DNA from: Bacteroidales bacterium
Lineage (GTDB): Bacteria; Bacteroidota; Bacteroidia; Bacteroidales; UBA1715
Assembly (NCBI GenBank): GCA_024409235.1
Contig: JAKSUA010000002.1
Location: 66,385 to 130,384 of the forward strand
Length of the DNA: 64,000 nucleotides
Reading direction: 5' to 3'
The position numbers were made by a program, and so were the translations under genes. Shown one piece after another: positions 47,456-62,851 of the stretch; position 1 is the first letter of the stretch, and every line of letters starts with the position of its first letter. The notes under the pieces were generated by a model, which worked only from the letters and a program-made list of their open reading frames with translations, ran no database searches and was not told where the DNA came from.

Positions 47456-47470
47456 AAGCAGTCTTTTTTT
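47441..47470. terminator. Bidirectional terminator between convergent genes
   Basis: AAAAAGACTG, eight-nt loop, CAGTCTTTTT: ten perfect pairs. It ends the clpX-side operon on the plus strand and the T9SS cargo gene on the minus strand. Confidence 0.88.
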
Positions 47471-50057
47471 ATTTTTTTCCATCACTAAATTTATGTACGA
47501 ATCCTGACAATTCACGTTTATGAATTTCACAGTCTGACCAATATTCATACACATCACACACATAATAGAAAACACCATCGGTTAAAGTTTTCTCTGTTTT
47601 ATAATGATGTCCATTCCAATTTAATTCCGGATTTTCTGTTGCAAAAACAAGCTGTCCCCAAGCATCATACATTTTCATGTCAACTTTTTGTACAAAACGG
47701 TTCAATGTGGGATGAAATAAATCGTTTTCCCCATCCCCATTCGGAGTAAATACATTCGGCAATGAATATTGAGGACAATTATAAAGACATGTATCATATT
47801 CTCTAAGTCCTATATTTCCCGCAGAGTCTTCTGCTGCAACATAATAGCATCCAGCCATATTGCTTACAGAATCTATAAAATCATGCACATACGAAGTGGC
47901 ACTTCCAGAAACAGAACTTAATATTCGCCATTCCATATTCGAACAATCTTTAAAATACACATTCACATTTTTTATTTCATCATCGTCATCGATTTTCCAC
48001 GTAATTGTTCTAGATAAATTCTCACAATCTTGAGACACTTTAAAGTTCATAGACTTTGGAGGAATCGTATCTGCAGGAATTGCATAAATCATCTGAGAAT
48101 TATTATAAACCCTTTGAGGTAACAATTTATAATCAAAATAGCCGCTTGTAGTTACATAATAACAATATTCTTTCTGATTCTCAAGACCATTATCCCAGAA
48201 TTCGCCATTAACAAATATTCCTAAAGAATCAAAAACATCGGAGTTTTTTCTATAGACATAAACAGTATCATTTTCCCAACCGACATTTGTTGTCAAAAGC
48301 AATCTGATTTTATGATTATAAGATTCATAATCCAATCTAGGAGAAGACGACACAGGGTTCACTCCTATCAGAATAGGCGTTCCCGACGCTAACGAATAAA
48401 ATTCCACCCGATACGAATATGCCGAGTCATACGTATTTAAGTTCTTATCTATATATGTTGTATCCTGAATACCATCTATTTCCGCTATTTTCTTAATATA
48501 TTCTCCATAAAGTCCAGAAGATTGATATAACCAATATTGATATGGTTCAGGAAATTTTATAGAATCAAACTCACGTGAAATAGACCAGGCAACAAAAATC
48601 TCCCCTTCTTTCTCATGCGTTTTTTGCACACTCACATTTGTTATTACAGGAGCACTCGGAATAAGTTGTGTGCAAACTTCTTGCGAAATATAACTAGAAT
48701 AATTTCCTGAAAACACCGAACAAAGACGGTAACAATACGTAAAACCAGGAGTCAAACCTAATCCATTGTTATTATCAAAATATGTTTTTTGTGAGGCAGC
48801 AACCGTTGCTATTTTTTCGTAAGAGTCATCCAATGCATCTGGCAAACCAAACTCACAATATTCAGGAACGTAATCTATTGATTTTTTTGACCGATAAATA
48901 TCATATGATTGAATCTGGCTGGCACAAACAGAATCTTTCCATTGCAAATACACAGAAACAGATTGTGCGTCAGCGCTTAGTTCAACAGGAGGATGACCAA
49001 TGACTTTTATATTCACATATTTCATATCTGCCAAAGCTACCTTGTCATCATCAACAGCTTTAAAAAGAACCATATAGGACTGTTCTCTTATCTCATCACA
49101 AGTTGGAATCCAAGTAAATTCCGACACTATTTTTCCAGGCTCATTCGAAACTACAGAAAAATCCGCTTTTGAGCCTACCTCAAAAGGTCCACCCGACGCC
49201 GTTAAAGTTATATTATTACTATCCGCATCTACAGCTATAACTTGAAAACGAACAGTATCACCAACACGTACACAAACATCCGATAATGTTTCAATTTTTG
49301 GAACAGTATTATCTGCATCATATACTTCAATCTGCATATCACGGACAATTTCACTGATTTTCGTACCTTTTCTCCACTCCTCTATTACCATAGCCACATT
49401 ATAACTACCAAGCACAACAGGTGCGTCCCACACCAAATCACCAGAAACAGCATCAACATAAAAGTCTTTACTCGTCATCGGATATGAATAACCACTAATA
49501 AAATCGCCATTTTCTCCAGAACAAGTTGTCAATCGATATGCAAGACTATCACCATCTGCATCATAAGCTGCAGGATTATGAATAAACCTAACTCCTATTG
49601 CCGCATTATCTACAGGAGGATTAGTCAAAACCGGTGTTGTATTTCCTCCTAAAATAGCATCAATTCTAAGTGTTGTCGAAATAGAAAACGGAACATTTAC
49701 CGACTCTACAATATTAATAACTCCTTCATTTCTATTAGGATCTTCCATGGAAATCACATACGTACCAGGACCGGAAAAAGAATGAGTTGTTTTATACGTA
49801 TTCAAAGTAAAATTATCCGGCAGAAATTCCTCTGAAATACGTGGAATATTACTAACTGAACCATCACCCCAGTTCATTGTCAGTTCGTCCCGTGACTTAT
49901 TTGCAGCACTTGGAGTATAGGTGTATGTGATTACCGTAAATTCATAAATATAACCTGAAGTTTGCTTATATGTTATCTCACCTGCCCTATTGTGAGTTGC
50001 AAATAAGGTTACAGAAAAGAAGAAAAACAATATTATGCAAACCGCAAATCTTTTCAA
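47469..50057 (-). CDS. T9SS type B cargo protein with gliding-motility C-terminal domain
   Basis: Large secreted protein (862 residues) with a signal peptide (MKRFAVCIILFFFFSVTLFA). The N-terminal half has PKD/Ig-like features (FSGPGTYVISMEDP, AYDADGDSLAYRLTT, IAVDADSNNITLTASGG). The middle has fibronectin-like parts (YDIYRSKKSID, YSYRVEFYSLASG). The last 100 residues are the CHU_C/type B sorting domain: LPNVFTPNGDGENDLFHP and MKMYDAWGQLVF. This domain predicts T9SS export. The gene begins 3 nt after the stop of the putative restriction enzyme gene. An adhesin or motility role is plausible but unproven. Confidence 0.88.
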   Translation of the reverse strand: MKRFAVCIILFFFFSVTLFATHNRAGEITYKQTSGYIYEFTVITYTYTPSAANKSRDELTMNWGDGSVSNIPRISEEFLPDNFTLNTYKTTHSFSGPGTYVISMEDPNRNEGVINIVESVNVPFSISTTLRIDAILGGNTTPVLTNPPVDNAAIGVRFIHNPAAYDADGDSLAYRLTTCSGENGDFISGYSYPMTSKDFYVDAVSGDLVWDAPVVLGSYNVAMVIEEWRKGTKISEIVRDMQIEVYDADNTVPKIETLSDVCVRVGDTVRFQVIAVDADSNNITLTASGGPFEVGSKADFSVVSNEPGKIVSEFTWIPTCDEIREQSYMVLFKAVDDDKVALADMKYVNIKVIGHPPVELSADAQSVSVYLQWKDSVCASQIQSYDIYRSKKSIDYVPEYCEFGLPDALDDSYEKIATVAASQKTYFDNNNGLGLTPGFTYCYRLCSVFSGNYSSYISQEVCTQLIPSAPVITNVSVQKTHEKEGEIFVAWSISREFDSIKFPEPYQYWLYQSSGLYGEYIKKIAEIDGIQDTTYIDKNLNTYDSAYSYRVEFYSLASGTPILIGVNPVSSSPRLDYESYNHKIRLLLTTNVGWENDTVYVYRKNSDVFDSLGIFVNGEFWDNGLENQKEYCYYVTTSGYFDYKLLPQRVYNNSQMIYAIPADTIPPKSMNFKVSQDCENLSRTITWKIDDDDEIKNVNVYFKDCSNMEWRILSSVSGSATSYVHDFIDSVSNMAGCYYVAAEDSAGNIGLREYDTCLYNCPQYSLPNVFTPNGDGENDLFHPTLNRFVQKVDMKMYDAWGQLVFATENPELNWNGHHYKTEKTLTDGVFYYVCDVYEYWSDCEIHKRELSGFVHKFSDGKK

Positions 50058-50060
50058 TGT

Positions 50061-50663
50061 TTATTTTTTTACAAGAAACCCTTCTACAACTTCTATTTTT
50101 TGAGATTCTTGAAAGGTTATTTCCCTTAACTTAACTATCAAATCATCAATATCATTTGTATTACAATCAATAATTTTATCCAGACCAATAATACTTCCAT
50201 CATTCACTTTATTTTTTACATTATTTGCTTCTTCGCTAGACAAAGTCAACAAATAACATTGTGCCCTACGATGAACATATTTCAAAGCAATTGCTTCTAA
50301 ATCAGCCTGTTTATACCGTTCTCGTAAACTTGTTTTTAATGACAAACTAACAGGTGTTGATTTTGAATACAATATAGTATCAAATTCTATATTAGGAACA
50401 AACGCAACTTTTGCTTGAGAATAGAAAGGTAAAATATTTTCTCTATACAATAATGTATATATAATTAATTCGAAGATTTTTCCATTTAAGTTATTATTTT
50501 TTTTTGAATTTTGTTGATATGCAGCCCAACATATTGACACATACTCTTTAGGCGTTGAATAACATACATCTAAAAAAGTTTTTGATTCAAATAACGATTC
50601 AAAAATAACAACTGTTTGAGCATCTTCATTACCAACAATATTTAATTCTTTCAACTTTCCCAT
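50061..50663 (-). CDS. Probable type II restriction endonuclease (companion of the adjacent methyltransferase)
   Basis: The 200-residue cytoplasmic protein has no signal peptide. It begins 2 nt after a DNA cytosine methyltransferase stop, the place expected for its restriction partner. I do not recognise the exact family. A possible PD-(D/E)xK-type core is visible: an acidic residue in PNIEFDTILYSKS followed by a strand ending SLSLKTSLRERYKQADLEA, where Lys lies in an SLK context. The gene is more AT-rich than its neighbours by eye. The endonuclease call is inference from context plus this weak motif; an unrelated accessory protein is possible. Confidence 0.55.
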   Translation of the reverse strand: MGKLKELNIVGNEDAQTVVIFESLFESKTFLDVCYSTPKEYVSICWAAYQQNSKKNNNLNGKIFELIIYTLLYRENILPFYSQAKVAFVPNIEFDTILYSKSTPVSLSLKTSLRERYKQADLEAIALKYVHRRAQCYLLTLSSEEANNVKNKVNDGSIIGLDKIIDCNTNDIDDLIVKLREITFQESQKIEVVEGFLVKK

Positions 50664-50665
50664 TC

Positions 50666-51904
50666 TTATACATTTTTTATTAATCTTTGTAACAATTGTT
50701 TTCCTGTTGCTTGTATAGCAGGAACGGCAACAGAATTACCAAATTGTTTATATGCAGAGGCATCTGCCACTGTTATTAAAAATTCATCAGGAAACCCTTG
50801 TAAACGGGCCCACTCCCGAGGTGTCATTTTTCGCCAACCATCCTTATTAATTTCACCCTTTATTCTTGTTGTAGGAGTATAATCCGTAAGTCTATTATCT
50901 ATAACAATATTCCTTTCGCGTCCCATACCTCCAACAACTATTGCATTTGCAACTCCATCATCTGGAATAATTTCATATCCAAAACCATGCCCTTTACTTT
51001 CGTGCCTTTTTTTATGTGCGATTAAGGTGTTTTGATATGTGGTGGAAAGATAGTACTTCGAAGGAACCTCATTTTCTTCCCTTATATCAATAAATCGTTT
51101 AGTAGTATCCGTAGGTAAAGGATACGAAAATTCAGTAATATTCAAATCTTTACGAAAACCTATAAAATAAATTCTTTCTCGATGTTGCGGAACTCCGAAA
51201 TTCATTGCGTTTACAATCTGAGGTTCTGGAACAAAATAATTTAATTCATTTCGTAAAACACTCAATATAGTTTTTAAAGTTCTTCCTTTATCATGAATCA
51301 TCAGACCTTTTACATTCTCCAAAAAAAATGCTTTTGGACGTTTTCGTTTAATAATTTCCGCGACATCAAAAAAAAGCGTGCCTCGAGTTTCCTCAAAACC
51401 TAAACGTTTTCCCGCTAATGAAAATGCCTGACATGGGAAACCTGCACACAAAACATCAAAACCATCTGGAATACATGCTTTTGTTTCCTCCTTTGTTATA
51501 TCGCCAAAAGGAACTTCTCCAAAATTCGCAAAATAAGTTTTCTTCGCTTGTTCATCCCATTCTGAAGAAAATACACATCTTCCACCAAGATTTTGCATTG
51601 CAATTCTAAAACCTCCTATACCAGCAAACAAATCTATAAACGTAAATTTCGGTTGATCTGGTTCGGGAAATGGAATGTCAAAAAAATCTTTAAACATATA
51701 AAGTTGCTGTGGAACCGTTGATTCAGCAACTCTATTGTCTTTTCGAGAAGATGTATTTTCTAATATTTCTTCAACTTCTGATGCGTAGGGCAACTTCACC
51801 GAATTATGTAAATGAGCATAATGTGATAACTTTGCCATTTGAAAGCCATCCAACTTCGACAACACCTCTTGCAATTTAGTACCTTTTGAATCCATTATTT
51901 TCAT
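50666..51904 (-). CDS. DNA (cytosine-5)-methyltransferase
   Basis: Transfers methyl from S-adenosylmethionine to C5 of cytosine in a specific DNA site. Motifs are in the normal order: I (FIDLFAGIGGFR, about residue 86), IV with the catalytic Cys (GFPCQAFSLAGKRLG), VI (FLENVKGL), VIII (PQHRERIYFIGF), target-recognition region, IX/X (MTPREWARLQGF ... YKQFGNSVAVP). An N-terminal extension of about 85 residues precedes motif I. The start may be Met1 or Met4. A TATTTTTG -7 box lies upstream. With 50061-50663 it forms a likely type II restriction-modification unit. The recognition site cannot be predicted here. Confidence 0.95.
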   Translation of the reverse strand: MKIMDSKGTKLQEVLSKLDGFQMAKLSHYAHLHNSVKLPYASEVEEILENTSSRKDNRVAESTVPQQLYMFKDFFDIPFPEPDQPKFTFIDLFAGIGGFRIAMQNLGGRCVFSSEWDEQAKKTYFANFGEVPFGDITKEETKACIPDGFDVLCAGFPCQAFSLAGKRLGFEETRGTLFFDVAEIIKRKRPKAFFLENVKGLMIHDKGRTLKTILSVLRNELNYFVPEPQIVNAMNFGVPQHRERIYFIGFRKDLNITEFSYPLPTDTTKRFIDIREENEVPSKYYLSTTYQNTLIAHKKRHESKGHGFGYEIIPDDGVANAIVVGGMGRERNIVIDNRLTDYTPTTRIKGEINKDGWRKMTPREWARLQGFPDEFLITVADASAYKQFGNSVAVPAIQATGKQLLQRLIKNV

Positions 51905-54673: not shown

Positions 54674-54693
54674 ACAATCTTAAAAATACAACT

Positions 54694-55536
54694 ATGATAG
54701 ACAGTCCACTTATTGATGCAACTATTGACATCGCTTTCAAAGAAGATATTGGCGACGGAGATCACACAACATTATCTTGTATTCCTCATGATTTAGAAGG
54801 TCGCGCCCGTTTATTAGTTAAGCAAGATGGTATTCTTTGTGGTGTTGAATTAGCAAAGAAAATATTTGCAAAATTCGACCCAAGCTTAAAAGTGACTCAA
54901 TATCTGCATGATGGCGACAAAATAAAAAAAGGTGACATTGCATTTACTGTTGAAGGAAAAACAATCTCTATCTTACAAACCGAACGACTTGTTTTGAACT
55001 TTATGCAACGTTTAAGTGGTATTGCTACTCAAACTGCAGAATATGTAAAACTACTTGATGGCACAAATACAAAAATCCTTGACACCCGAAAAACAACACC
55101 TGGACTTCGTTTATTAGAAAAATATGCAGTAAAAGTCGGTGGAGGTGAAAACCACCGTATTGGATTGTACGATATGATTTTAATTAAAGATAATCATATT
55201 GACTATGCCGGTGGCGTTACTGCAGCTATCACAAAAACGAAAGAATATTTAAAAGAAAAAGGAAAAGACCTTAAAATAGAGGTTGAAGCACGCACACTAG
55301 AAGAAATAAAAGAAATTCTTACATTTGATGTTGAACGTATTTTGATAGACAACTTCACTCCTGAAGAAACTAAAGTTGCTGTTGCACTTATCAACGGAAA
55401 ATGTAAAACAGAATCTTCCGGCGGAATCACGAAAGAATCAATACGAGCATATGCAGAAGCTGGAGTTGACTATATTTCTGTTGGAGCTTTAACACATCAT
55501 ATCAGCAGTTTGGATTTAAGTCTCAAAGCATATTAA
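54694..55536 (+). CDS. nadC: Nicotinate-nucleotide diphosphorylase (carboxylating)
   Basis: Quinolinate phosphoribosyltransferase of NAD synthesis: quinolinate plus PRPP to nicotinate mononucleotide, CO2 and PPi. The 280-residue protein starts at ATG 54694 (MIDSPLIDATIDIAFKEDIG); a longer frame begins before the -7 box and is rejected. Motifs: EDIGDGDHTT, LNFMQRLSGIAT, the quinolinate/PRPP-binding LDTRKTTPGLRLLEKYAVKVGGGENHRIGL, and IEVEARTLEE. nadA and nadB are not in the window. The next gene begins 2 nt after the stop, so nadC heads a four-gene run. Confidence 0.96.
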   Translation: MIDSPLIDATIDIAFKEDIGDGDHTTLSCIPHDLEGRARLLVKQDGILCGVELAKKIFAKFDPSLKVTQYLHDGDKIKKGDIAFTVEGKTISILQTERLVLNFMQRLSGIATQTAEYVKLLDGTNTKILDTRKTTPGLRLLEKYAVKVGGGENHRIGLYDMILIKDNHIDYAGGVTAAITKTKEYLKEKGKDLKIEVEARTLEEIKEILTFDVERILIDNFTPEETKVAVALINGKCKTESSGGITKESIRAYAEAGVDYISVGALTHHISSLDLSLKAY

Positions 55537-55538
55537 TA

Positions 55539-57194
55539 ATGTGCCTTAGACTTTTGTTCAAGAAGATATTTATATTCTTTTTATTCACGAGCATAGTTTC
55601 GCGTGTATTTTCACAAGAAACTACTCCACCCGACAAACCAAAACTAGTTGTTTTAGTTATTGTCGAGCAGATGCGTTATGAATATTTAGAGAGATTCAGC
55701 TCCCATTTTTCCAGCGGAGGATTTAAGAAGCTGATGTATTCTGGATCCCACTGCGTTGACGCTCATGTAAATTTTTCTTATGGACAAAGTGCCACAGGAT
55801 ATGCTTCTATTGTAACGGGAACGACACCATCAAACCATGGAATCATTGGAAATTCCTGGTATAATAGAAAAACAAAGACACGTATAAACAGCGTTTTAGA
55901 CGATGATTATCCAAGCACTGGAAATGACACCCATGACGAATATCAAGTTTCGGCAAAAAATCTGATTGCAACAACTTTCGGAGATGAATTAGCAACACAA
56001 AGTTTCGGTAAATCACGTTCCTTTTCCATCAGCCTTGACCAACAAGCAGCTGTTCTTTGTGCCGGGCATAAATCCAATGGCGTTTTTTGGTTGGACGAAT
56101 ATACTGGAAATTGGATGAGTGGAACTTATTATAATAATGTACTTCCCACATGGTTGCACAAATTCAACGACAAAGGACTTGCAAACGTATATATAAATCG
56201 TACCTGGAACACATTTTTACCAATTACAAAATACAAAGAATCTACAAGAGACGATGCAAAATATGAAATAGGCATACGAAACCAAATAGTTTTTCCTTAT
56301 TATCTTCCAAAGATTAAAGACAATTACAAACCATATAAAATTTTAAAAACAACACCTTACGGAAACACTTATACCAAAGATTTAGCAATAGAATTAATTG
56401 AGAAAGAACAACTTGGAAAAACATCTAATTTAGATTTTCTTACAATAGCATTCACAGCAACAGAAGAAATTGGAAATAAATTCGGATGTTTATCAAAAGA
56501 AATTGAAGACACATATATACGATTAGATTTTGAATTAATGTTTTTTCTAAATTATCTGGAAACGCACATTGGAAAAGACAATTTTCTACTTATACTTACC
56601 TCAAACCACGGGATGTCGATTTCACCAAAGTGTGAATCTCAGAAAACAATGAAATTAGGCATCTTCAAACCAGTTGAAACCATGTATCTTCTAGACAAAC
56701 ATCTTGATGTTACTTTCGGCGAAGACAATTGGATTGAGCATTATCAAGACATGCAGATATATTTGAATCTGAAAACTCTAAAAAACAGAAATCTTACCAT
56801 TGCAGAAGTTGAAGATGATTGTTGTGAATTTCTAACACAACTTTCCGGAGTACAATCTGCCATAGGATCGGTATGGCTTGCTAACCATAACTTTTGTTCA
56901 AACGACACCTATAGAATGGTGGATAATTCCTACAATATAGAGCGTTCCGCCAATATATTCCTTACCTTAAAACCAGGTTGGGGCGAACAGACTGTTGAAT
57001 CTGTAGGTTCACACCTTTCACCATATAATTACGACACACACGTTCCTCTTATCTGGTATGGTTGGAAAATGAAGTCAAAAATCATTCATCAACCAATAGA
57101 AATTACCGATATTATCGTAAGTTTGTGCGAAATTACAAAGACAACAAGACCAAACATGGCAACCGGTAAAGTTATTGATGCATTATTAAAATGA
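55539..57194 (+). CDS. Alkaline phosphatase superfamily protein (PafA-like), probable pseudoenzyme
   Basis: The 551-residue protein has a signal peptide (about residues 1-25) and the fold of the periplasmic PafA phosphatases (LVVLVIVEQMRYEYLERF, SIVTGTTPSNHGIIGN, YDTHVPLIWYG). Compared with the PafA active site as I recall it, most catalytic residues are changed. The first metal Asp is Glu43 (VEQM for VDQM), and the TxPGH nucleophile loop is shortened to SATGYAS. The Lys-x-Arg pair is Asp167-Gln-Gln169, D-x3-H is Glu309/Asn313, and the Asp of DHG is Asn356. Asn105, His357 and His501 remain. It is therefore unlikely to hydrolyse phosphate esters normally. It is coupled to nadC (2-nt gap) and to the next gene (4-nt overlap). 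Confidence 0.8.
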   Translation: MCLRLLFKKIFIFFLFTSIVSRVFSQETTPPDKPKLVVLVIVEQMRYEYLERFSSHFSSGGFKKLMYSGSHCVDAHVNFSYGQSATGYASIVTGTTPSNHGIIGNSWYNRKTKTRINSVLDDDYPSTGNDTHDEYQVSAKNLIATTFGDELATQSFGKSRSFSISLDQQAAVLCAGHKSNGVFWLDEYTGNWMSGTYYNNVLPTWLHKFNDKGLANVYINRTWNTFLPITKYKESTRDDAKYEIGIRNQIVFPYYLPKIKDNYKPYKILKTTPYGNTYTKDLAIELIEKEQLGKTSNLDFLTIAFTATEEIGNKFGCLSKEIEDTYIRLDFELMFFLNYLETHIGKDNFLLILTSNHGMSISPKCESQKTMKLGIFKPVETMYLLDKHLDVTFGEDNWIEHYQDMQIYLNLKTLKNRNLTIAEVEDDCCEFLTQLSGVQSAIGSVWLANHNFCSNDTYRMVDNSYNIERSANIFLTLKPGWGEQTVESVGSHLSPYNYDTHVPLIWYGWKMKSKIIHQPIEITDIIVSLCEITKTTRPNMATGKVIDALLK

Positions 57195-57913
57195 AAAGAA
57201 AGTTTTTAGTCATATTATTTTCATTCTTATTCATTTTTGCCTCTGGCCAAAATAAGAAAATCTATTTTACCGATCCAGGAGAGCTTATTTTCCAATTTAC
57301 TCAAACAAACATTGAAGATAACACTGCGGAAAATGGAGTCCGCACCTCCTATTTTACAAATGTTCCTTATTACATGAACATCAACTGTAGCAATCACTTT
57401 GGGTTCATGCCGGGAATATCAATCAAAAACATCGGAATAAAAACAAAAAACGAAAGAATTGACAGCATTACATATGATAGAATAAAACGCAGGGTTTTTA
57501 CAAGCGGACTTTCTATGGCTGTAAAATGTGGTTTTTTCGACAAAGGTATATGGGCATTTGCTGGTGCGGGAATTGACTGGGCATTTCATTACCGCCAGAA
57601 ATTGTTTGAAACATCAGGAAGAAAAAACGTCATAAAAAATGGAGAATGGATGAGTAACGCAACTCCAACATACATTCCATCTTTATTTTTCGGTATTCAG
57701 ACACCACTTTCATTTAATATAAAAGCAACCTATTATTTCAACGATTTTCTTAATAAAAATTACAAAGGTTCATTAGGTGATTTCAGTAAATTCACACAAT
57801 CTCAGTTATTTACAATATCATTTTCAGTAATTTTAAAAGAAATGCCAGACAAATATTCGTCTGAAATTCAACTTGAGCAACCCTCAAAAAGAGAAAAGAC
57901 CATAGAATTATGA
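57191..57913 (+). CDS. Probable outer-membrane beta-barrel protein of unknown function
   Basis: The 240-residue protein begins with a Sec signal peptide (MKRKFLVILFSFLFIFASGQ) and continues with alternating hydrophobic strands ending in aromatic residues (SGLSMAVKCGFF, IWAFAGAGIDWAFHY, SLFFGIQTPLSFNIKATYYF, LFTISFSVIL). This pattern fits a small outer-membrane barrel. I do not recognise the family. It overlaps both the phosphatase-like gene and the methyltransferase gene by 4 nt, so the three are translated together. The last 20 residues are charged and lie after the final strand, which is unusual for a barrel that normally ends in Phe. Confidence 0.65.
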   Translation: MKRKFLVILFSFLFIFASGQNKKIYFTDPGELIFQFTQTNIEDNTAENGVRTSYFTNVPYYMNINCSNHFGFMPGISIKNIGIKTKNERIDSITYDRIKRRVFTSGLSMAVKCGFFDKGIWAFAGAGIDWAFHYRQKLFETSGRKNVIKNGEWMSNATPTYIPSLFFGIQTPLSFNIKATYYFNDFLNKNYKGSLGDFSKFTQSQLFTISFSVILKEMPDKYSSEIQLEQPSKREKTIEL

Positions 57914-58644
57914 AGCAAATAAAATTACTATTATACAGATTATTAGGCTTAAAAAACTATCTACGTTTGATTAGTAGAATTTACATTATTCTCATTGAAT
58001 GTGGATTTGGCAAAAAAAAATATCCAGAAATACATTATTTAAAAACTATAATAAAGCCGGATTTTCATTGCATTGATATAGGAGCTAACTTAGGATATTT
58101 TTCCTATTTTATGAGCAAATACGCCGGTAAATCAGGAAAAGTATATTCAGTGGAACCTATCCCACTTTTTGGAGAAATTTTTAAGAGAAATGTAGCGAAA
58201 AATAATACTCCCAACATCACTCTTCTGCCTTACGCACTTGGAGCCGAAGAAAAAAATGTAAAAATGGGAATGCCTTTAGTTGACAAAGCCGTACATCACG
58301 GAATGACAAAAGTGATAGAGACAGAAGGTAAATACGAAAAGACATTTGATGTTGCAATGAAAATCCCCGATAATCTATTTACAAGTTTAGAAAAAATTGA
58401 CTTTCTTAAAATTGATGTTGAAGGCTATGAACATATAGTCCTATCTAACATGAAAAATTTCCTAAAAAGAGACTTGCCAATTATAGAAGCCGAACTCGGA
58501 GGAACAGCAAACCGAAAAGAAAGTATATCTATTTTAACTGATTTAGGATATAAAATTTTCATTCTAAAAAACAACAAACTTTGTGAAACCAATTCAACAG
58601 AATGTTTGTCTTATACAGAAGATTTGTATTTTATAGCAAGATAA
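57910..58644 (+). CDS. FkbM family methyltransferase
   Basis: SAM-dependent methyltransferase (244 residues) of the FkbM family, often acting on sugars or other small hydroxyl compounds. The SAM-binding motif is HCIDIGANLGYFSYFMSKYAG near residues 53-73, followed by the acidic strand YSVEP. The family's C-terminal part is FLKIDVEGYEHIVL. It is the last gene of the nadC run and overlaps the preceding barrel gene by 4 nt. A link to glycan modification at the cell surface is possible given the exopolysaccharide genes in the window, but the substrate is unknown. Confidence 0.88.
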   Translation: MKQIKLLLYRLLGLKNYLRLISRIYIILIECGFGKKKYPEIHYLKTIIKPDFHCIDIGANLGYFSYFMSKYAGKSGKVYSVEPIPLFGEIFKRNVAKNNTPNITLLPYALGAEEKNVKMGMPLVDKAVHHGMTKVIETEGKYEKTFDVAMKIPDNLFTSLEKIDFLKIDVEGYEHIVLSNMKNFLKRDLPIIEAELGGTANRKESISILTDLGYKIFILKNNKLCETNSTECLSYTEDLYFIAR

Positions 58645-58725: not shown

Positions 58726-59433
58726 ATGGCAAAGAAAAAGGGATCTAAAGACAGAAGCTACGAGTTGAAAAAACTTAAGGCTGAGTGTGTTGCAGAAGAA
58801 AACAGTCGTTACATTAAATCTCAAAACAAAAGAAAACTTGGTAGCGGCGAAGCTCCTGCGGGAAACACTGGACTTAAAGCTACGAAAAGCGAAGTTTTCA
58901 TTTTTCTTGTAGGACAAGAAGAATCAACGAAAAACATTCAAGAACAATTCAAAACAACGAGAAGCTACAAAAAAACGAAATCTTTTACTGACGCTGAATC
59001 GGCAAAGAATTTCTTGGATGTCACAAAATTCCCTAAAAACTCAATCATCACAATGATTCTTGTTGCACCTGATTTCGCAAAAGAAGAAGATATCCAAAGC
59101 GAACTTGATGTAATTGCTAAGATTAAGGAAGAAGACCCTAGTTTGGACGTAATTCTTCTTTCTGCATCATCAATTTATACAAGCGTAGCTGATTTTACTG
59201 TTCAAAAAGCAAGCGACGCATTTGGAAAGATTGTTACAAATATCACATGGGCAATCCGCGAACAAGATCGTATCCGTCGCCAAGTTGAATCAAAACAATT
59301 TATCAAAATCGCAATTATCGTATTCTTTGTATTCTTTATCTTAATTTTCGCAATAGATTTCATAACAGGAATGATGGATACTTCCCCAAATCCTTCGGGA
59401 ATTTTCAACATTCTTCCTATTCCTCACGAATAA
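58726..59433 (+). CDS. Membrane-tethered protein with a receiver-like domain lacking the phosphorylation site
   Basis: The 235-residue protein has three parts: a basic N-terminal segment (1-50, MAKKKGSKDRSYELKK...), a domain at about 56-180 with the alternating strand/helix order of response-regulator receivers, and one transmembrane helix at about 193-216 with a short tail. In the receiver-like part, strand 1 reads EVFIFLVG without the usual acidic pair. The position of the phospho-aspartate has Ala114 (MILVAPDF), while the Ser of strand 4 (ILLSASS) and a Lys (VQKAS) remain. It could be a phosphorylation-independent interaction module. No partner gene is adjacent. The function is unknown and the homology is by eye. 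Confidence 0.6.
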   Translation: MAKKKGSKDRSYELKKLKAECVAEENSRYIKSQNKRKLGSGEAPAGNTGLKATKSEVFIFLVGQEESTKNIQEQFKTTRSYKKTKSFTDAESAKNFLDVTKFPKNSIITMILVAPDFAKEEDIQSELDVIAKIKEEDPSLDVILLSASSIYTSVADFTVQKASDAFGKIVTNITWAIREQDRIRRQVESKQFIKIAIIVFFVFFILIFAIDFITGMMDTSPNPSGIFNILPIPHE

Positions 59434-61516: not shown

Positions 61517-62851
61517 ATGAAAACGAAGAAAATCATATCCATTTTAATTACCTTATTGATTTACAATCTTGCTTTCTCGCAAATTTTATACGATCAATAT
61601 GCAAACTCTTCGTATGCAAAAATCAAATCATTCAAAATGGTTCCCGTTGTCGAAGAAAGGAAAGGTTATATTTTGCACTATGGTCCAGAAAATGGCGATT
61701 CTCTAGCAAATCCTGTATTTCCATTATTAGGGAATTGCGGTTTGATGGTTGATTTTGATATTTTAGAAGAATCTACACGAGATTTACGCTATGAAGTTAT
61801 TCATTGCGACAGAAATTGGAAAGAAGATGAACTTCTTGAAGGTGAATACGTTACCATTAAAGAAGATTTAGTATTAGATGGCGACCGAGCCGAAAGTTCT
61901 TTTAGCACAACTGTCCCATATATTCACTATAGTTTTATGTTTCCTTTTTCTGATATAACTCTTCATGTATCAGGAAATTACATTCTTAAAATCTATGAAT
62001 TAACCGACGACGACAAAATCGTGCCACTTATACAGAAACGATTTGTTGTATATGAACAATTAGTTGAAATCCAAGGAGAAGTAAAGCGACCAAATGTTGT
62101 GCAATACATTGACTCACATCAACAAATAGAAGCAAAAATTATTCCTCACGGATTTGACTTGTCGTCTTTCGACAAAGATTTATTTGTTGTGTACAGACAA
62201 AACGGACGCTGGGACAAAACAATTAGTGGCATACAGCCAAGCCATATATCTGGTGATGGAAGTCTTATCTTCAATAATAATAGAAATGCACTTTTCGAAG
62301 CTGGTAACGAATTTCGTCAATTTGTATTCAGAAACTTAAGAATAGCTACTTTCCCTATCGATTACATAACCAAAGAAAACGGATTATTCACCGTGTATCT
62401 CCATCCCGACGACGATTGGCACGCAGCCTATACATCAACAACAGACTTAAACGGAAAATTCATAATACAAGAAGAAATAAGTCCACAATCATCTGATTAT
62501 ACCGCAGATTACGCAACAGTAAAATTCACATTGCCATATCACAAAACAATGGATGACACGCTTAATCTATATGTCTGCGGAGAGTTCAACGACTGGAAAA
62601 TGAATGAAGAAAATAAGATGACATACAACATTGAAAAACAACAATATGAGGCGTCTATTCTATTAAAGCAAGGCTGTTACAGTTACACTTATATTAGAGC
62701 ATCAAACAACTTCAAAACAATTGATTTTTCGTCTATTGATGGCAATTTTTACCAAACAGAAAACGAATACGAAATATTCGTGTATTACTACGACTATAGC
62801 ATTGGATACGACCGCTGTATTGGCTACAAAAGAATTTATACAAATTTTTAA
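61517..62851 (+). CDS. Type IX secretion plug protein (DUF5103)
   Basis: Envelope protein of 444 residues with signal peptide (MKTKKIISILITLLIYNLAFSQ). The family is called the T9SS plug because a member closes the lateral opening of the SprA translocon. Visible family features: IKSFKMVPVVEERKGYILHYG near the N-terminus, GLMVDFDILEESTRDLRYEVIHCDRNWKEDELLEGEYV, and the later PYIHYSFMFPFSDITLHVSGNYILKIYEL. The C-terminal part has an immunoglobulin/CBM-like strand pattern (YVCGEFNDWKMNEENKM). Its presence fits the two T9SS cargo proteins in the window. It stands 35 nt after the epimerase gene. Confidence 0.85.
   Translation: MKTKKIISILITLLIYNLAFSQILYDQYANSSYAKIKSFKMVPVVEERKGYILHYGPENGDSLANPVFPLLGNCGLMVDFDILEESTRDLRYEVIHCDRNWKEDELLEGEYVTIKEDLVLDGDRAESSFSTTVPYIHYSFMFPFSDITLHVSGNYILKIYELTDDDKIVPLIQKRFVVYEQLVEIQGEVKRPNVVQYIDSHQQIEAKIIPHGFDLSSFDKDLFVVYRQNGRWDKTISGIQPSHISGDGSLIFNNNRNALFEAGNEFRQFVFRNLRIATFPIDYITKENGLFTVYLHPDDDWHAAYTSTTDLNGKFIIQEEISPQSSDYTADYATVKFTLPYHKTMDDTLNLYVCGEFNDWKMNEENKMTYNIEKQQYEASILLKQGCYSYTYIRASNNFKTIDFSSIDGNFYQTENEYEIFVYYYDYSIGYDRCIGYKRIYTNF

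What the first reader, a model, noticed from the sequence alone, without database searches (positions are those of the whole stretch)
55539..57194. PafA-like phosphatase that has lost most of its active site
The fold, signal peptide and several landmarks are kept, yet the first metal Asp is Glu43, the nucleophile loop TxPGH is shortened, and K-x-R is Asp-Gln-Gln (167-169). D-x3-H is Glu309/Asn313, and Asp of DHG is Asn356. Substitution is spread over all catalytic segments while the frame is intact, which suggests a conserved non-catalytic role such as binding a phosphorylated ligand or scaffolding. It is coupled to an outer-membrane-type protein and an FkbM methyltransferase.
Basis: partly seen in the sequence, partly recalled or inferred. 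Interest (0 to 1): 0.7.

Follow-up and report, generated by a model that had tools for sequence, protein, structure and literature searches.

The report
Widespread dead phosphatase in Bacteroidales
The gene encodes an exported protein with the complete fold of the bacterial phosphatase PafA but a ruined active site, and the same kind of dead enzyme is kept across most sampled Bacteroidales that carry it, which suggests it does an unknown non-enzymatic job in the cell envelope.

Summary
ORF 55539-57194 is an intact, exported 551-aa PafA homologue (AlphaFold pLDDT 92; Z 61.6 to PafA). Seven of ten catalytic residues are changed: D38E, T79S, K162D, R164Q, D305E, H309N, D352N. N100, H353 and H486 remain. 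The nucleophile loop is not shortened; its Thr has become Ser84.

This is not a local oddity. In the window's order 163 of 178 sequences examined keep at most 5 of 10 catalytic residues, in at least 63 families. Outside the order, 125 of 125 are intact. The loss is targeted: catalytic columns are retained at 0.23, other invariant columns at 0.82. Selection persists (dN/dS about 0.05). Constraint has moved to an alpha/beta segment (376-440) that is the most variable part of true PafA. Six intact members already carry that segment.

In gut-type relatives the gene sits in an operon lnb - pseudo-PafA - secA (30 of 48 loci). The family co-occurs with lnb even when unlinked. I read it as a non-catalytic envelope factor acting through the segment; the partner is inferred, not shown. 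The number of independent losses is unresolved: one shared loss is not rejected.

The parts
55539..57194 (+). pseudo-PafA: exported 551-aa PafA-fold protein with degenerate active site (E43 S84 N105 D167 Q169 E309 N313 N356 H357 H492)
55539..55613 (+). N-terminal signal-type segment, predicted cut after VFS (residues 1-25)
   Evidence: sequence read directly; predicted helix 2-28; the cleavage site is my reading, not a program result
56664..56858 (+). derived alpha/beta segment, residues 376-440 (motif LLxxYLxAxYGxGxWVxxYxxxQIYLNxxLI in the family), the region of gained constraint
   Evidence: secondary structure
54691..55536 (+). nadC, quinolinate phosphoribosyltransferase, 2 nt upstream; upstream partner in all four genera of the family
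57191..57913 (+). 240-aa outer-membrane-type protein (signal peptide, no Pfam hit), ATGA overlap with pseudo-PafA; homologues in g1, g2, g3, not g4
57910..58644 (+). FkbM-family methyltransferase, ATGA overlap; neighbour seen only in genus g1

Best explanation
The protein is a pseudophosphatase: an exported, fully folded paralogue of the alkaline phosphatase PafA that no longer hydrolyses phosphate esters, kept for a non-catalytic role in the cell envelope. Shown here: fold, export-type N-terminus, loss of metal, nucleophile and phosphate-contact residues across the family, purifying selection, and a shift of constraint from the active site to an alpha/beta segment (residues 376-440). Inferred: this segment is a docking surface for a protein partner in envelope-protein biogenesis. 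The best candidate pathway is lipoprotein maturation/export, because the most derived members are encoded between lnb (lipoprotein N-acyltransferase) and secA. The six members with both the segment and an intact site suggest that the second function arose first and made catalysis dispensable.
For: Ten-residue check and alignments: 163/178 in-order sequences keep at most 5/10 catalytic residues; outside the order 49/49 and 76/76 are intact. Targeted loss: retention 0.23 vs 0.82, p 5e-6. dN/dS about 0.05 in the two least saturated congeneric pairs. The gene is present in all 12 near-complete same-family genomes. Fold kept: pLDDT 92.3 and Z 61.6 to PafA; also in the most derived clade. NCBIfam PafA cut-off 650: intact clade-B members 694-721, degenerate members 319-615, window 509. 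Segment 376-440: pairwise identity 0.22 vs 0.48 elsewhere in PafA, 0.41 vs 0.41 in clade B, 0.44 vs 0.33 in clade C; hallmark residues present in all six intact clade-B members. Operon lnb - pseudo-PafA - secA in 30 of 48 loci (Lnb by Pfam). Lnb found in 23/41 families with unlinked degenerate copies vs 6/50 families without the gene, p 1e-5.
Against: No activity, metal content, localisation or partner was measured. Within the genus the pocket residues are 95% conserved against 75% overall, so some pocket function (a residual metal or ligand site) is not excluded. In the window's own genome lnb and secA lie on other contigs and the neighbour is nadC, so the pathway link is borrowed from relatives. 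About half of the families with unlinked copies show no Lnb by this model. Families are not phylogenetically independent, so the Fisher p is optimistic.
Confidence: 0.72

Rival explanations
1. A hydrolase with altered chemistry: Ser84 as nucleophile and one remaining metal held by E43, H357, H492 and neighbours, acting on a different (for example sulfate, phosphonate or diester) substrate.
For: S or T at position 84 and E43, H357, H492 are constant in the genus; pocket 95% conserved there vs 75% overall. T79S by itself leaves a hydroxyl nucleophile in PafA numbering (5TOO carries T79S).
Against: In sister genera of the same family the nucleophile becomes Asn or Pro and D305/H309 become Q/Y or A/H. 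Across the family all ten positions drift and K162, R164, D305, H309 sit near background frequency.
Confidence: 0.12
2. A pseudo-active site that binds a phosphorylated or anionic ligand (sensor or carrier) without hydrolysis.
For: Pocket conservation inside the genus; N105, H357, H492 kept.
Against: The phosphate contacts K162 and R164 are lost family-wide, usually replaced by acidic or neutral residues (D/N/E and E/Q/Y), which makes phosphate binding less likely. Conservation gained lies elsewhere.
Confidence: 0.13
3. A gene on the way to loss: a relaxed former PafA with no function.
For: Active-site decay is extensive and patterns differ between lineages.
Against: Intact frames, dN/dS about 0.05, presence in 12/12 near-complete family genomes, high conservation of 48 non-catalytic columns and a newly conserved segment.
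Confidence: 0.03

Closest known systems
PafA alkaline phosphatase (Elizabethkingia meningoseptica, PDB 5TJ3; NCBIfam NF042991)
   Same: Full-length fold (Z 61.6), 33% identity, exported, same domain order
   Different: Seven of ten catalytic residues changed; 509 bits, under the 650-bit cut-off; derived conserved segment 376-440
PhoK/SPAP alkaline phosphatase (3Q3Q, 5XWI)
   Same: Same superfamily fold, Z 44
   Different: 22% identity; an active two-metal enzyme
ENPP nucleotide pyrophosphatases/phosphodiesterases
   Same: Core alkaline phosphatase superfamily fold, Z about 30; Pfam PF01663
   Different: Active Thr nucleophile and six metal ligands; no export-operon context of this kind
PorX C-terminal alkaline-phosphatase-superfamily (PglZ) domain of the type IX secretion regulator (paper PMC11320123, seen by abstract only)
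   Same: A Bacteroidota protein with an alkaline phosphatase superfamily domain linked to secretion
   Different: Cytoplasmic response regulator, different subfamily; no sequence relation tested here

Membership tests
PafA alkaline phosphatase (NCBIfam NF042991 equivalog) | Score at or above the curated 650-bit cut-off | tested here: not met
   509.1 bits; degenerate relatives 319-615, intact relatives 694-721
PafA alkaline phosphatase | Six metal ligands D38, D305, H309, D352, H353, H486 | tested here: not met
   E, E, N, N, H, H in the window
PafA alkaline phosphatase | Nucleophile T79 and phosphate contacts N100, K162, R164 | tested here: not met
   S84, N105, D167, Q169
PafA alkaline phosphatase | Full alkaline phosphatase superfamily fold with PafA inserts | tested here: met
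   Foldseek TM 0.88/0.93 and VIA-align Z 61.6 to 5TJ3
PafA alkaline phosphatase | Phosphomonoesterase activity and two zinc ions | not testable with these tools
   Needs purified protein
Pseudoenzyme | Catalytic residues lost across orthologues while fold and frame are under purifying selection | tested here: met
Pseudoenzyme | A demonstrated non-catalytic function | not testable with these tools
   Only inferred from constraint shift and gene context

The most novel reading that the evidence does not exclude
An order-wide pseudophosphatase of Bacteroidales is an unrecognised factor of lipoprotein maturation or Sec export, working with Lnb at the periplasmic face through a docking segment that evolved in a still-active PafA paralogue before catalysis was lost.
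Probability: 0.27. Interest if true: 0.82.

Novelty: new variant of a known kind. Interest (0 to 1): 0.64.

Why it matters
Profile annotation places these genes with alkaline phosphatase PafA, and surveys of phosphorus cycling count pafA genes. One published PafA phylogeny removed every sequence with a changed key residue (PMC8812569), so such homologues would have been filtered out there. If the family is what it seems, pafA-like counts from gut and anaerobic Bacteroidales that are made by similarity alone describe a protein that does not release phosphate. The operon with lnb and secA in Bacteroides-type genomes makes the function directly testable in laboratory strains. The clade also offers a rare series, with intact members that already have the new conserved segment, for studying how an enzyme becomes a non-enzyme.

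Tried and rejected
(1) Type IX secretion link: in some loci the gene lies by GldD/GldE or by a T9SS-cargo peptidase, but SprA is present in 371 of 393 genomes and the gene also occurs in SprA-negative genomes, so T9SS is neither required nor informative. (2) Many independent losses: the free tree nests intact members among degenerate ones, but the AU test does not reject a single degenerate clade (p 0.55), and the residues K162, R164, D305, H309 in degenerate members are near background frequency, so the count of losses is left open. (3) One large quick alignment gave unstable residue calls; I discarded its degenerate calls and used L-INS-i, which agreed with the earlier alignment in every sequence. 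(4) Homology of the window's 240-aa membrane-type protein to the barrel-type protein downstream in other loci: hhalign 60%, not claimed. (5) An active paralogue in the same genome: none found. (6) A distant copy in 40 genomes without a hit: profile search found only marginal hits of at most 20 bits. (7) Literature searches for a described PafA pseudoenzyme returned nothing relevant; the Lnb discovery paper is not held.

Full report
What is there. The ORF at 55539-57194 (+) is intact, 551 aa, with an export-type N-terminus. Pfam gives Phosphodiest (PF01663). NCBIfam gives PafA at 509 bits, under its 650-bit cut-off. phmmer aligns residues 26-547 to PafA 5TJ3 at 1.1e-91. An AlphaFold2 model from 42 window and locus sequences has pLDDT 92.3 and pTM 0.89 and superposes on 5TJ3 with Z 61.6, 2.1 A, 515 residues.

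Active site. From my general knowledge, not tested here, T79S by itself is tolerated by PafA; 5TOO is a T79S/N100A/K162A/R164A variant. The real damage is therefore the loss of K162, R164, H309 and D352 together with D-to-E changes at two further ligands.

How local is it? Twelve of twelve near-complete genomes of the same family have the gene. All full-length copies are degenerate, with the exact pattern kept in most of the genus and drifting between genera: ESNDQENNHH, ESNEQQNNHH, ENNQYQYNHH, EPNTEAHTSH. In an order-wide sample 238 of 393 genomes have a homologue. I read residues in 178 distinct in-order sequences by L-INS-i alignment (158, 20 more): 163 keep at most 5 of 10, one keeps 9, 14 are intact. 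Degenerate copies occur in at least 63 families. Outside the order all 49 sequences examined in the class and all 76 flavobacterial loci are intact. In these samples the decay is confined to this order (Bacteroidales, from the record titles of the nearest named relatives).

Family structure. Trees separate PafA proper (with 5TJ3, Flavobacteriia and a few in-order second copies) from an in-order paralogue group (SH-aLRT 99). That group contains clade B (window type), clade C (gut type) and six intact members (L119, L121, L123, L130, L138, L140). G076 carries a degenerate clade-B copy and an intact PafA; G015, G099, G222, G268 and G366 carry clade C plus an intact PafA. No fetched genome had both B and C. 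Profiles of B and C align end to end at E 3e-121. The number of catalytic losses is not settled (AU p 0.55 for one degenerate clade).

Selection. Synonymous sites are saturated for most pairs; the two closest congeneric pairs give dN/dS about 0.05 (simple Nei-Gojobori counts, the script stopped on a duplicate pair after these values were printed). Among the 58 columns at least 95% conserved in intact sequences, the 10 catalytic ones are retained at 0.23 in clade B and the other 48 at 0.82 (p 5e-6); in clade C 0.13 and 0.63. The columns that lost most conservation are the active site and its second shell: H309, H486, H83, R164, D305, T79, H353, N100, K162. The columns that gained most fall largely in residues 376-434: F376, L384, Y388, W398, Y402, Q425, F431, Q434. 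These are present in clades B and C and in all six intact clade-B members, not as a rule in PafA. In PafA this segment is poorly conserved (0.22 against 0.48 elsewhere); in clade C it is better conserved than the rest (0.44 against 0.33). This reversal is the strongest hint of where the present function lies. That the segment is exposed, and that it binds a protein, is inference.

Gene context. In the window nadC, pseudo-PafA, a 240-aa outer-membrane-type protein and an FkbM methyltransferase are packed with a 2-nt gap and two ATGA overlaps. nadC is upstream in all four genera of the family; the membrane-type protein follows in three; FkbM was seen next to it only in the window's genus. In clade C the order is lnb, pseudo-PafA, secA in 30 of 48 loci, flanks permitting; lnb was identified by its Pfam domains PF13387 and PF25221, and secA by reading its sequence. 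Lnb is the lipoprotein N-acyltransferase of Bacteroides (Armbruster et al. 2024, cited in PMC13103446). With one genome per family, Lnb was found in 6 of 50 families without the gene, in 45 of 67 with it, and in 23 of 41 with unlinked degenerate copies (the counts were added up by me from the two tables). The families are related to each other, so the p value is only a guide. In the window's own genome lnb and secA are elsewhere.

Reading. The most economical account is a pseudoenzyme retained for contacts made by the derived segment in envelope-protein biogenesis. A residual or altered hydrolase, or a ligand-binding pocket, remains possible for the window's genus because the pocket is well kept there (95% against 75%). 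Non-function is contradicted by selection and retention.

Known or new. The closest known protein is PafA, of which this is a paralogue that fails three tested defining features. I found no description of a pseudo-PafA family in the papers that could be searched. One PafA survey states that sequences with changed key residues were removed (PMC8812569). Absence from this library is not proof of novelty.

Noticed in passing
L249-L267 and others (e.g. L259:4141-7050 and beyond): Operon lnb - pseudo-PafA - secA in Bacteroides-type genomes: an exported protein encoded just upstream of secA, a placement reminiscent of secM-secA in E. coli.
   Followed up: partly
L118-L217, upstream of the gene: In many clade-B loci a YchF GTPase gene and an M14 carboxypeptidase with a T9SS sorting domain lie directly upstream, and a convergent GGGP synthase - phosphopantetheinyl transferase - GldD - GldE - ssb cluster lies downstream.
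   Followed up: partly
L183, L188, L193, L206, L214 and others, downstream of the gene: In about ten clade-B loci pseudo-PafA is followed by an S8 subtilase and a barrel-type protein of about 250 aa without Pfam match.
   Followed up: partly
61517-62851 and 47469-50057: A type IX secretion plug protein and a large protein with a CHU_C type IX sorting domain lie in the same window.
   Followed up: no
50061-51904, minus strand: A C-5 cytosine DNA methylase next to a 200-aa protein with no Pfam match, possibly a restriction-modification pair.
   Followed up: no
58726-59433: A 235-aa protein with no Pfam or NCBIfam match and a C-terminal hydrophobic segment, downstream of FkbM.
   Followed up: no
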